Shown here one piece after another: positions 32,651-63,973 of a stretch of DNA of 64,000 bases (its first letter is position 1; each line of letters begins with the position of its first letter). The stretch is from Agrobacterium vitis (lineage in GTDB: Bacteria > Pseudomonadota > Alphaproteobacteria > Rhizobiales > Rhizobiaceae), in NCBI RefSeq assembly GCF_013337045.2, contig NZ_CP118259.1, forward strand, positions 1,302,001 to 1,366,000. Reading direction: 5' to 3'. A program made the position numbers and the translations under genes. Below the pieces are notes generated by a model. The model made no database searches and was not told where the DNA came from. It saw only the letters and a program-made list of their open reading frames with translations.

Positions 32651-32924
32651 GATGGGCAGCGCTCCTTGAAACTCGTCTTTGTCGTTTCGGCAAAACCGGT
32701 GGACACTTTTGCCGGACAAACTCGCAGCGCATTTAGCGGCAAGCGACGGCCAAGGGAAAGCCTTACTCTGCGTATTGATTGAAAATTGCCGGGGTGGGTT
32801 GGTTTTGCTCTTATCTTCAAATGCGTTAGGATAGAAATATCGATGCTGTCGGGAAGGCAGATTCGTGTTTCTTCATAACAGCGTTGTTTTCCCGGATAAT
32901 GGCGAGATAACAAGGAATGGGTCT

Positions 32925-34713: not shown

Positions 34714-36387
34714 ATGTATCGTTACGATGAATTCGACCACGCCTTTGTTGCAGCCCGCGTGGACCAGTTTCGCGATCAGGTAGGTCGCCGCTTGTCCGGC
34801 GAACTGGCGGAAGATGCGTTCAAGCCGCTTCGGCTGATGAACGGCGTTTATCTTCAATTGCACGCCTATATGCTGCGCGTCGCCATTCCCTATGGCACGT
34901 TGAACGCCAAGCAGATGCGCATGCTGGCCCATGTGGCGCGCAAATATGACCGTGGCTATGGTCATTTCACCACGCGGCAGAATATCCAGTATAATTGGCC
35001 AAAACTGTCGGATACGCCCGATATTCTGCAAGAACTGGCCAGTGTTGAGATGCACGCCATCCAGACCTCAGGCAACTGTATCCGCAATGTTACCGCCGAC
35101 CATTTTGCCGGTGCGGCCCAGGACGAAGTCGCCGATCCGCGCCCTTATGCTGAAATCCTGCGGCAATGGTCTTCGGTCCACCCGGAATTTTCCTTCCTGC
35201 CGCGCAAGTTCAAGATTGCCGTGACTGGGGCCGAGCGCGACCGCGCTGCCATTCAGGTGCATGATATCGGCTTGCATGTGAAGAAAGACGCGAGTGGAAA
35301 TCTTGGCTTTGCCGTCTATGTCGGTGGCGGTCAGGGCAGAACGCCGATGATTGCCAAGAAGATCAAGGATTTCCTGCCTGAAGAAGACATGCTGTCCTAT
35401 ATCACCGCCATTGTCCGGGTTTATAACCTGCATGGTCGCCGCGACAACAAATACAAGGCGCGGATCAAGATCCTCGTGCATGAAACAGGCACGGAAGAAT
35501 TGACCCGCCAGATCGATGCGGAATTCGCAAACCTGAAGGACAGTGTGCTGAAGCTGCCCGATGCCGATATTCGCGCCATCGAGAGCTATTTTGCCCTGCC
35601 TGATCTGGTTGAGCGCCCGGAAGGCTGGGAAGTTCTGGCAAAGGCCAAAAAGGCGGATGACGGTTTTGCCACCTGGCTTGCGCAGAATGTACAGCCGCAT
35701 AAGCATCCCGATTACGGCATGGTGACAATTTCGCTGAAGCCGATTGGTGGCATTCCCGGTGATGCCAGCGATGCCCAGATGGATCTGGTGGCGGATCTTG
35801 CCGAGCGCTACGGCTTTGACGAAATCCGCGTCAGCCATGAGCAGAACCTGATCCTGCCGCATGTGGCGATGGCCGATCTGCCAGCGCTGTATCAGGCGCT
35901 ATCAGGCGCTAATCTTGCCACCGCCAATGCGGGCCTGATCACTGACATTATTGCCTGTCCCGGGCTGGACTATTGCGCGCTGGCCAATGCGCGCGCCATT
36001 CCTGTCGCCCAGGCGATTTCCACTCGCTTTGGCTCCCAGGCGCGCCAGGCTGAGATTGGTGAGCTGAAAATCAAGATTTCCGGCTGCATCAATGCCTGCG
36101 GCCATCATCATGTCGGCCATATCGGTCTCTTGGGTGTGGAAAAGAAGGGTGCGGAGCTTTACCAGATCACGCTTGGCGGATCGGGGGATGAAAATTCGTC
36201 CATCGGTGAAATCATCGGTCGCGGCTTTGAGCCGGAAAAGGTGACGGATGCGGTGGAGACCGTGGTCGATACCTATCTGGCGCTGCGGCTCGATCCGAAG
36301 GAAACCTTCCTTGAGGCTTATCGCCGCGTCGGGCCAAAGCCCTTCAAGGAAGCCCTGTATGGCGGCGCATCCGCCGAAGCCGCCTGA
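34714..36387 (+). CDS. cysI: Sulfite reductase (siroheme / 4Fe-4S haemoprotein)
   Basis: 557 residues. Two ferredoxin-like half-domains and the metal site: ACPGLDYC (Cys415, Cys421) and KISGCINACGHHH (Cys458, Cys462), the ligands of the 4Fe-4S cluster bridged to siroheme. GHFTTRQNIQ and GNCIRNVTAD mark the first repeat. Ferredoxin-type or one-component family; a nitrite reductase cannot be excluded by motif, but cysG, DUF2849 and DUF934 neighbours favour assimilatory sulfite reduction. A 10-bp tandem duplication lies in the coding region at 35891-35910. Confidence 0.93.
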   Translation: MYRYDEFDHAFVAARVDQFRDQVGRRLSGELAEDAFKPLRLMNGVYLQLHAYMLRVAIPYGTLNAKQMRMLAHVARKYDRGYGHFTTRQNIQYNWPKLSDTPDILQELASVEMHAIQTSGNCIRNVTADHFAGAAQDEVADPRPYAEILRQWSSVHPEFSFLPRKFKIAVTGAERDRAAIQVHDIGLHVKKDASGNLGFAVYVGGGQGRTPMIAKKIKDFLPEEDMLSYITAIVRVYNLHGRRDNKYKARIKILVHETGTEELTRQIDAEFANLKDSVLKLPDADIRAIESYFALPDLVERPEGWEVLAKAKKADDGFATWLAQNVQPHKHPDYGMVTISLKPIGGIPGDASDAQMDLVADLAERYGFDEIRVSHEQNLILPHVAMADLPALYQALSGANLATANAGLITDIIACPGLDYCALANARAIPVAQAISTRFGSQARQAEIGELKIKISGCINACGHHHVGHIGLLGVEKKGAELYQITLGGSGDENSSIGEIIGRGFEPEKVTDAVETVVDTYLALRLDPKETFLEAYRRVGPKPFKEALYGGASAEAA

Positions 36388-36398
36388 GGAGCGCGATC

Positions 36399-36905
36399 AT
36401 GACCCGTATCTGGACCGAAACCGGTTTCGCCGCACAGGACATCTGGCTGGAGGAGACCGAAGAGGTGAAAGCGGCTGAGGGCCAGAAGGCGCTTCTGCCG
36501 CTGGATGCCTTTATCGCTGCGGCCGAAGACAGCAATGCCGTCGATCTCGGCGTGGTCATCGCGCCAGCCGATGACGTGACGAAGTTGAAACCCTATCTCG
36601 ACCGCATCGCCATCATTGCCGTGAAGTTTCCGGCCTATAACGATGGCCGTGGCTTCAGCCATGCTTCGCTGCTGCGCGACAGACTTGGTTATCAGGGCGA
36701 ATTGCGGGCGGTGGGCGACGTGCTGATCGATCAGGTGCCGTTGATGCTGCGCACCGGCTTCGATAGCTTTGCTGTGACCAATGCGGTGGCGCTGAAACGG
36801 CTGGAAGAGGGGCGTCTGCCGGGGATTGCCAATCACTATCAGCCAACTGCCCAGCCAGCCGCTGAGGTTGGTGGTTATAGCTGGCGCCGCCGGTCTGCGT
36901 CTTGA
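36399..36905 (+). CDS. DUF934 protein, sulfur-assimilation operon
   Basis: 168 residues. Pattern DLGVVIAPADDVTKLKPYLDRIAIIAVKFPAYNDGRGFSHASLLRDRLGYQGELRAVGDVLIDQVPLMLRTGFDSF identifies DUF934, usually coded beside sulfite or PAPS reductase genes. The GRGFS and LRxGFD blocks are the conserved core. No catalytic assignment is known to me. Last full-length gene of the cysG operon; no cysH is present in the window. Confidence 0.88.
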   Translation: MTRIWTETGFAAQDIWLEETEEVKAAEGQKALLPLDAFIAAAEDSNAVDLGVVIAPADDVTKLKPYLDRIAIIAVKFPAYNDGRGFSHASLLRDRLGYQGELRAVGDVLIDQVPLMLRTGFDSFAVTNAVALKRLEEGRLPGIANHYQPTAQPAAEVGGYSWRRRSAS

Positions 36906-36935
36906 GGAGCTGAGTACTCATAAGGAACGATAATA

Positions 36936-37016
36936 ATGGCCTTGCTGCGCGTCTCGCCTCACTGTCGGTTGCACGCTTTCCGCCTCCCGGAAAGCGTGCG
37001 CTGCTGCGGTTTATGA
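36936..37016 (+). CDS. Putative 26-residue cysteine-containing leader peptide
   Basis: ATG 36936, preceded by AAGGAACGA (36922-36930, 5-base spacing), then 26 codons to TGA 37014-37016. The peptide begins MALLRVSPHCRLHAF and ends VRCCGL, with Cys at 10, 23 and 24; the last two are adjacent TGC codons close to the stop. A 12-bp perfect hairpin (36971-36999) lies inside the coding sequence just before the two Cys codons. It starts 31 bp after the DUF934 stop and ends 131 bp before ferredoxin-NADP reductase. The layout resembles amino-acid attenuation leaders, with cysteine as the sensed residue. Confidence 0.55.
   Translation: MALLRVSPHCRLHAFRLPESVRCCGL
36971..36999 (+). promoter_or_regulatory. 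Hairpin inside the leader peptide frame
   Basis: GCACGCTTTCCG (36971-36982), loop CCTCC, CGGAAAGCGTGC (36988-36999): a perfect 12-bp stem. A ribosome waiting at the Cys-Cys codons (37002-37007) would cover its 3' arm. It may also act as the 3' end of the cysG-cysI transcript, though no U-tract follows. Confidence 0.65.
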
Positions 37017-37036
37017 TCGCATCTACGTGTGGCCTC

Positions 37037-37093
37037 TGGTCATGCGTGGGATTTTACAGTAATTGGCCCGCCAAGGCGGATAATGCATGACCG
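37037..37093 (+). promoter_or_regulatory. Second structured element upstream of fpr
   Basis: GGTCATGC (37038-37045) pairs perfectly with GCATGACC (37085-37092); with G-U pairs the stem extends to 11 bp (37037-37047 with 37083-37093). Inside it lies CCGCC-AA-GGCGG (37068-37079). Placed between the leader peptide and fpr, it could be an anti-terminator or ribosome-site control structure. Confidence 0.45.
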
Positions 37094-37147
37094 AACACGC
37101 CCTGATCCGCGGCAGTTCGACGTGAGATTTGAAGGACCCGAACGCTG

Positions 37148-37960
37148 ATGAATGCTCCTGCAAAGACCGACAATGCCGAACTAATCGTCCCGGAAGGCGT
37201 CTATGCCGAAACGGTGCTGAGCGTGACGCATTATACCGACCACCTGTTCCGCTTCCGGATGACCCGGCCTGCCGGTTTTCGCTTCCGTTCGGGCGAGTTC
37301 GCGATGATCGGCCTGATGGTGGAGGGTAAGCCGCTCTACCGCGCCTATTCCATCGCCAGCCCGTCCTGGGACGAGGAACTGGAATTTTTCTCCATCAAGG
37401 TGCCGAACGGCCCGCTCACCCAGCATTTGCAGCGGATTCAGCCGGGCGACCGGGTGTTGATGCGCAAGAAGCCGACCGGTACCCTGGTGCTGGACGCGCT
37501 GACGCCCGGCAAGCGGCTTTATATGTTCTCGACCGGCACCGGCATTGCGCCGTTCGCCAGCCTGATCCGTGACCCGGAAACCTATGAGAAATTCGAGGAA
37601 GTCATCCTCACGCATACCTGCCGCGATGTCGCCGAGCTGAAATATGGGTTCGACCTGATTTCCGAAATCAAGGCCGATGAAATGCTGAGCGAAATCGTCG
37701 GCGACAAGCTGAAACATTACGCCACCGCCACCCGCGAAGACTATCCCTTCATGGGCCGGATCACCGACCTGATCGAAAACGGCAAGCTGTTTACCGACCT
37801 CGGCGTCCCGGCGCTGGACCCAGCCATTGACCGTGGAATGATCTGCGGCTCGACGGCGATGTTGAAGGACACCAAGGCGCTGCTGGAAAAGGCGGGGCTG
37901 ACAGAAGGTGCGAACAACAAGCCAGCCGAATTCGTCATCGAGCGGGCATTCGTCGGCTGA
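37148..37960 (+). CDS. fpr: Ferredoxin-NADP(+) reductase
   Basis: 270 residues. FAD-binding RAYSIASPSWDEELEFFSIKV, NADP-binding FSTGTGIAPFASLIRDPETYE, then THTCRDVAELKYG and CGSTAMLKD; it ends VIERAFVG, the C-terminal form of the bacterial subclass I Fpr. Transfers electrons between NADPH and ferredoxin or flavodoxin, so it can drive the upstream ferredoxin-type sulfite reductase. The 5' region holds the cysteine-containing leader. Confidence 0.95.
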   Translation: MNAPAKTDNAELIVPEGVYAETVLSVTHYTDHLFRFRMTRPAGFRFRSGEFAMIGLMVEGKPLYRAYSIASPSWDEELEFFSIKVPNGPLTQHLQRIQPGDRVLMRKKPTGTLVLDALTPGKRLYMFSTGTGIAPFASLIRDPETYEKFEEVILTHTCRDVAELKYGFDLISEIKADEMLSEIVGDKLKHYATATREDYPFMGRITDLIENGKLFTDLGVPALDPAIDRGMICGSTAMLKDTKALLEKAGLTEGANNKPAEFVIERAFVG

Positions 37961-41608: not shown

Positions 41609-41718
41609 TTCTAGAGCAACGGACCGAAACGTGGGAACCGGTTTTCCGTCCGGAAATGCGTAAAAACAAAAGTTTAGAGCGTTTCGGTGTTTCCATGAAA
41701 CACCGAAACGCTCTAAAC
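41609..41718. repeat. RIME-like intergenic palindromic repeat, copy 1
   Basis: Begins TCTAGAGCA and contains GGTTTTCCGTCCGGAAATGCG followed by AAAACAAAAG, then a perfect 22-bp palindrome with a 3-base loop (41672-41693 and 41697-41718). The same elements in the same order recur at 59388-59493. It fits the RIME family of Rhizobium intergenic mosaic elements. Fills the dacA-homologue to tmk gap. Confidence 0.8.
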
Positions 41719-63913: not shown

Positions 63914-63941
63914 TTATCGATCAAGGCTACTCGCTAATAAA

Positions 63942-63973
63942 CGCCGTGCATCCGAAGGGATGCACGGCGTTTC
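63942..63973 (+). terminator. Terminator hairpin near the window end
   Basis: CGCCGTGCATCC (63942-63953), loop GAAG, GGATGCACGGCG (63958-63969), then TTTC: a perfect 12-bp GC-rich stem 28 bp after the phytase-like gene. Could serve genes on either strand. Confidence 0.8.

What the first reader, a model, noticed from the sequence alone, without database searches (positions are those of the whole stretch)
36936..37147. Cysteine-containing leader peptide with nested hairpins between sulfite reductase genes and ferredoxin-NADP reductase
Seen: an AAGGAACGA ribosome site followed by a 26-codon frame with Cys at 10, 23 and 24, the last two being adjacent TGC codons three codons before the stop. A perfect 12-bp hairpin sits inside the frame directly before the Cys pair, and a second stem (37038-37045 with 37085-37092) lies between the frame and fpr. 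Known: amino-acid attenuation leaders (trp, his), and reported cysteine-rich upstream frames in mycobacteria, use this layout. Inference: when charged Cys-tRNA is scarce a ribosome stalls at Cys23-Cys24, changing the fold downstream and tuning fpr, the electron supplier of the adjacent sulfite reductase.
Basis: partly seen in the sequence, partly recalled or inferred. Interest (0 to 1): 0.75.

Follow-up and report, generated by a model that had tools for sequence, protein, structure and literature searches.

The report
Conserved folded RNA before fpr
The short cysteine-containing reading frame is really in the DNA, but related bacteria preserve a folded RNA lying across it rather than the peptide, so this looks like a clade-specific structured RNA beside a sulfite reductase operon, not a demonstrated cysteine sensor.

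Summary
The frame (36936-37016), its 12-bp hairpin and the second pair of complementary 8-mers exist as described. The cysteine-attenuation reading does not hold up: across nine related genomes (Allorhizobium vitis complex plus A. taibaishanense) the Cys-Cys pair is kept in 5 of 9, the peptide shows no clear amino-acid constraint, no terminator-like site is found, and the second stem is not above shuffles. What is conserved is a plus-strand RNA fold at 36961-37060: a closing stem (P1) around three hairpins (P2-P4). Each of the nine sequences folds this way (z -4.2 to -6.7); 342 of 360 pair cells are kept; P2, P4 and a further hairpin P5 carry pair-preserving changes. The element has no Rfam match and matches strongly once in each of 9 of 63 genomes of the genus, always here. 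A short frame entering the fold is open in 14 of 17 loci that carry the CTGTC motif, so an upstream ORF may be real. Most likely this is an orphan cis-acting structured RNA at the cys operon-fpr boundary; its mechanism is inferred, not shown.

The parts
34714..36387 (+). Sulfite/nitrite reductase gene (cysI-like)
   Evidence: Pfam NIR_SIR and NIR_SIR_ferr
36399..36905 (+). DUF934 gene, last gene before the intergenic region
   Evidence: Pfam DUF934
36936..37016 (+). Upstream frame of 26 codons with Cys at 10, 23, 24
   Evidence: open in 9 of 9 clade genomes; peptide sequence not visibly constrained
36961..37060 (+). Four-way junction RNA, P1 closing P2, P3 and P4
   Evidence: CM R1
36961..36965 (+). 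P1 5' strand, pairs with 37056-37060
   Evidence: 8 of 9 genomes keep all five pairs, no covariation
36966..37003 (+).
   Evidence: 91.7% of cells paired, mostly wobble changes
37005..37021 (+). P3, UGCGGUU-UAU-GAUCGCA, holds the frame's stop codon
   Evidence: identical in 9 of 9, so conserved but without covariation
37023..37049 (+).
   Evidence: 95.4% of cells paired, two pairs with two-sided change
37056..37060 (+). P1 3' strand
37073..37089 (+). Conserved box AAGGCGGATAATGCATG, possibly the -10 region of an fpr promoter (inference)
   Evidence: identical in 8 of 9, one change in G011; the consensus promoter scan found nothing
37086..37124 (+). P5 hairpin just before the fpr ribosome site
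   Evidence: 95.4% of 108 cells paired, three pairs with two-sided change, 5 of 500 shuffles
37148..37960 (+). fpr, ferredoxin-NADP reductase-like gene

Best explanation
A conserved plus-strand structured RNA (four-way junction P1-P4, then hairpin P5) lies between the sulfite reductase operon and fpr in the A. vitis/taibaishanense clade. Supported here by comparison: the fold, its strand, one strong match per carrier genome, and its restriction to this locus and clade among the genomes searched. Inferred: it is carried on transcripts leaving the cys operon and acts in cis as a structured boundary that sets the 3' end or stability of the cys message and how much transcription runs on into fpr, while fpr may also have its own promoter near 37073-37089. 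The cysteine frame runs across the 5' half of the fold; if it is translated the ribosome would open P1-P3, but it is not specifically a cysteine sensor.
For: All nine sequences have the junction as minimum-energy fold, z -4.2 to -6.7, 0 of 200 shuffles each; minus strand -1.2 to -3.6. 342 of 360 cells pair; covariation score and cells with two-sided change reached by 0 of 500 shuffles. At pairs that are Watson-Crick in the own genome, 32 cells changed: 20 still pair as + RNA, 7 as minus RNA, 4 as Watson-Crick DNA dyad. Own versus G011: element 84% identical although pS is 0.43 (fpr) and 0.60 (DUF934) and the 5' spacer is 29% identical. P5 supported. CM: nine matches at E <= 2.7e-31, all at this locus, next best 9.1e-4, in 63 genomes. 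The 5' spacer is poorly conserved (0.46), which argues against a conserved promoter just upstream of P1.
Against: The nine genomes are close relatives; the structure was taken from the own sequence; P1 and P3 do not covary; pairs with two-sided change are reached by 30 of 500 shuffles. Of 26 distinct changed pair states 16 pair as + RNA and 11 as minus RNA, a weaker contrast. The whole intergenic region folds only moderately well (z -0.6 to -2.9 for the nine). No terminator-like site, no consistent pairing of the fpr ribosome site, so no expression platform is visible. The element is not found in the next Allorhizobium species. No transcript data were seen.
Confidence: 0.5

Rival explanations
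1. A cis-regulatory leader of fpr (riboswitch-like or controlled by translation of the upstream ORF): ligand binding or a ribosome on the short frame rearranges P1-P4 and P5 and changes fpr expression.
For: The fold continues with P5 to just before the fpr ribosome site. An in-frame ATG opens into the CTGTC motif in 14 of the 17 loci (of 86) that have the motif within 80 nt of DUF934; the 14 are the Allorhizobium ones. P4 and the 37038-37045/37085-37092 stem are mutually exclusive.
Against: Ribosome-site pairing is inconsistent (mean unpaired 0.25-0.76), no terminator, the alternative stem is not conserved above shuffles, no Rfam family. The three other loci with the motif have no open ATG.
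Confidence: 0.28
2. Cysteine-responsive attenuator: stalling at Cys23-Cys24 when charged Cys-tRNA is scarce.
For: Cys codons 10 and 24 are kept in 9 of 9; frame open in 9 of 9; neighbouring genes make sulfide.
Against: Cys23 in 5 of 9; pN/pS about 1; no terminator; second stem unsupported and excluded by P4. The invariant Cys codons sit in invariant RNA.
Confidence: 0.05
3. DNA operator or plain intergenic dyads bound by a regulator of fpr.
For: The 20-nt P3 block is identical in 9 of 9; other rhizobia have palindromes in the same interval (by eye).
Against: Changes preserve RNA pairing rather than Watson-Crick symmetry (20 versus 4 of 32 cells). In the own genome the 20-mer has, besides itself, only two 3-mismatch places, and the reversed control has one.
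Confidence: 0.1
4. Independent small RNA, or a dispersed repeat, that happens to lie here.
For: Compact 100-nt shape with three hairpins.
Against: One match per carrier genome, always here, so not a repeat; no Rfam match; no conserved 5' spacer; no U-tail.
Confidence: 0.07

Closest known systems
Amino-acid attenuation leaders (trp, his; in rhizobia rnTrpL/peTrpL of Sinorhizobium meliloti, PMC10117765, passages seen)
   Same: Short frame with codons of a relevant amino acid, overlapping RNA hairpins, upstream of a metabolic gene
   Different: Adjacent Cys codons kept in 5 of 9, no terminator-like site, second stem not conserved
Cys-rich regulatory sORFs of mycobacteria (Canestrari et al. 2020; original not held; seen as described in passages of PMC9094748)
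   Same: Cys codons near the end of a short frame upstream of a gene related to sulfur metabolism
   Different: Those are reported as conserved leaderless short ORFs with polycysteine tracts (title in the reference list); here the peptide is not conserved
Orphan structured RNA motifs and intercistronic hairpins that set mRNA ends or stability (class recalled, not from a call)
   Same: Conserved plus-strand fold between two co-directional genes, trigger unknown
   Different: Four-way junction with an invariant central hairpin, seen so far in one clade at one locus; no Rfam match

Membership tests
Amino-acid attenuator (Cys) | Short frame open in relatives upstream of the regulated gene | tested here: met
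   9 of 9 clade genomes, 26-27 codons
Amino-acid attenuator (Cys) | Conserved run of regulatory codons | tested here: not met
   Cys-Cys in 5 of 9; none in five other Allorhizobium
Amino-acid attenuator (Cys) | Terminator and mutually exclusive antiterminator | tested here: not met
   No terminator-like site in 36850-37250; candidate alternative stem not above shuffles
Amino-acid attenuator (Cys) | Expression responds to cysteine supply | not testable with these tools
   needs reporter assays
Mycobacterial polycysteine sORF attenuators | Conserved Cys-rich short peptide | tested here: not met
   pN/pS about 1 and variable residues; no NCBIfam match
Mycobacterial polycysteine sORF attenuators | Leaderless start | tested here: inconclusive
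   An SD-like AAGGA is present in the own genome but no transcript start is known
Known Rfam family | Match at or above a family's gathering score | tested here: not met
   Only a tRNA in the window; nothing up to E 1 in 36500-37400
Structured RNA element | Fold stability and covariation on one strand in relatives | tested here: met
Riboswitch | Ligand-dependent change of expression | not testable with these tools
   no ligand known; no consistent expression platform seen
Intrinsic terminator | Stem followed by a T run | tested here: not met
   0 found; P4 is followed by GGGATTTTACAG
Dispersed palindromic repeat | Several copies per genome | tested here: not met
   one match in the own genome

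The most novel reading that the evidence does not exclude
A new kind of leader in which translation of a short upstream ORF, coupled to the end of the sulfite reductase operon, unfolds a four-way RNA junction and so ties the amount of sulfite reductase made to the amount of the ferredoxin-NADP reductase that may feed it electrons.
Probability: 0.12. Interest if true: 0.65.

Novelty: new member of a known kind. Interest (0 to 1): 0.4.

Why it matters
It is a well-conserved structured RNA with no Rfam match, in a crown-gall lineage, placed between sulfite reductase and a reductase that may feed it electrons. If it acts in cis it is a control point between the two. It also shows that a striking Cys-Cys frame can be a by-product of an RNA fold, so such frames need a codon-level test before being called attenuators.

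Tried and rejected
Cysteine attenuation: tested by codon conservation, pN/pS, terminator scan and covariation of the second stem. tRNA or tmRNA at the site: none. Known RNA family: none. Dispersed repeat: one copy. DNA operator: weakened. Extension of the RNA model to A. terrae, strain S00303, A. oryziradicis, A. undicola, A. sonneratiae and two further loci: best match 7.8 bits, E 1.6, chance level. Protein family of the peptide: no NCBIfam match. Folding whole intergenic regions of 83 loci: mean z -1.66 on +, -1.50 on -, not informative. Ribosome-site sequestration: inconsistent.

Literature: nine searches listed no paper whose title or shown abstract start describes this element; only listings were seen except for three papers. 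PMC10117765 and PMC9094748: passages.

Full report
Observation. The frame, its SD-like site, the three Cys codons, the perfect 12-bp hairpin and the second pair of complementary 8-mers are at the stated places. The combination is unusual in the window, and 36960-37060 folds far better than its shuffles (z -5.9; second of 1065 windows; the lowest, at 41641, is a dispersed repeat). Genes: cysG, DUF2849, sulfite/nitrite reductase, DUF934, then fpr, all on the + strand. The fpr protein is 100% identical to that of A. vitis CG78 and NCPPB 3554, which places the window in the A. vitis complex (inference).

Relatives. fpr has a match in 63 of 63 genomes of the genus (in two of them, G004 and G018, only weak ones) and 189 of 199 family genomes. 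The intergenic DNA matched in 4 of 40 genomes. Reading upstream of fpr gave nine genomes with the same region: own, G012, G015, G240, G241, G272, G274, G275 and G011. The exact 11-bp-arm hairpin pattern occurs in 1 of 63 genomes, the own one.

Peptide. In the nine genomes the frame is open for 26 codons (27 in G011), but residues vary, for example MALLRVSPHCRLHAFRLPESVRCCGL (own), MALMRASSHCRLHAFCYPESVRRCGL (G012), MAEPDRWPHCLLHVFPIAEGVRHCGL (G274), MATLPLAERNCRLHALPPRKSVRRCGL (G011). The Cys of the PHC position and the third-last residue are Cys in 9 of 9; codon 23 is Cys in 5 of 9. For the last 18 codons pN/pS is 1 or more in 26 of 35 pairs that differ; with the own genome it is below 1 in 6 of 8 pairs (0.35-0.86). 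fpr gives 0.00-0.05 and DUF934 0.05-0.10 in nine pairs. The peptide ratio rests on about 12 synonymous sites, and RNA constraint at synonymous sites inflates it, so it shows only that the peptide is not visibly selected.

Fold. P1 (5 bp) encloses P2, P3 and P4. This junction is the minimum-energy fold of each of the nine sequences, with small differences in P1, P2 or P4 in some; z -4.2 to -6.7, 0 of 200 shuffles; minus strand -1.2 to -3.6. On the alignment 342 of 360 cells pair; covariation score and cells with two-sided change were reached by 0 of 500 shuffles, further pair types by 3, pairs with two-sided change by 30. P3 never varies and P1 loses one pair in one genome, so the support by change comes from P2 and P4. 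At pairs that are Watson-Crick in the own genome, 32 cells changed: 20 still pair as + RNA, 7 as minus RNA, 4 as a DNA dyad; counting distinct states over all pairs the contrast is weaker, 16 versus 11 of 26. P5 (37086-37124) has 95.4% of 108 cells paired and three pairs with two-sided change (5 of 500 shuffles). The constraint is on nucleotides: own and G011 are 84% identical in the element while pS is 0.43 (fpr) and 0.60 (DUF934) and the 5' spacer is 29% identical. Against: whole intergenic regions of the nine have z of only -0.6 to -2.9, the genomes are close relatives, and the structure was taken from the own sequence.

Distribution. A covariance model of the nine sequences found nine strong matches in 63 genus genomes, all at this locus (E <= 2.7e-31; next 9.1e-4). 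In 297 family genomes, of which only a few are of the genus, two were strong (G000 and G011) and the next was 0.014, which over so many genomes is chance level. The same interval in the nearest other Allorhizobium did not match.

Upstream ORF. In A. terrae, S00303, A. oryziradicis, A. undicola and A. sonneratiae a short ATG frame follows DUF934 and reads a Cys codon in the same CTGTC motif. Of 86 loci examined, 17 have CTGTC within 80 nt of the DUF934 stop; an in-frame ATG is open into it in 14, which are the nine clade genomes and these five, and not in the other three (L108, L144, L153). Shuffle probabilities per sequence were 0.13-0.51 in nine tested; the lineages are related, so no combined probability is claimed. 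Frame length (7 to 27 codons) and Cys content vary. The frame may be translated, in some species from a start that overlaps the DUF934 stop, but nothing marks it as Cys-specific.

Mechanism. The consensus scans found no promoter or terminator in 36850-37250. The box AAGGCGGATAATGCATG (37073-37089), identical in 8 of 9, could hold the -10 of an fpr promoter; other rhizobia have TATA-like boxes about 40-95 nt before fpr (by eye). The fpr ribosome site is not consistently paired. I favour a structured boundary at the end of the cys message that also affects read-through into fpr; a leader controlled by a ligand or by translation of the frame is the main rival. None of this was measured.

Known systems. 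The layout resembles amino-acid attenuation and the mycobacterial Cys-rich sORFs (PMC9094748, passages; original paper not held) but fails on conserved regulatory codons and on a terminator. It is best filed as an orphan structured RNA with no match in Rfam release 15.

Noticed in passing
window 37087-37125: A second short frame (ATGACCGAACACGCC...) overlaps P5 just before the fpr ribosome site; relatives have similar frames, some longer with 3 Cys.
   Followed up: no
window 41672-41718: Perfect 22-bp inverted repeat with a 3-nt loop between the dacA-like and tmk-like genes; the surrounding 96 nt match five other places in the own genome (74-83% identity), so it is a dispersed repeat family.
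   Followed up: partly
window 63939-63972: Perfect inverted repeat, 15-bp arms and 4-nt loop, followed by TTTCCGTTTATG; looks terminator-like.
   Followed up: no
L022-L034-like loci and L090-L136, DUF934-fpr interval: Other rhizobia have their own palindromes there: TTGACCTCGGTCAA (FNR/FixK-like, name recalled) in the Peteryoungia/Rhizobium sp. group and Ciceribacter variants, GGAAATATG...CATATTTCC in Agrobacterium, GACTGAAATATGCATATTTCAGTC-like in the R. tropici-like group (by eye).
   Followed up: no
window 32843-32878: A short frame ATGCTGTCGGGAAGG... (MLSGRQIRVSS) precedes cysG and also contains CTGTCGG.
   Followed up: no
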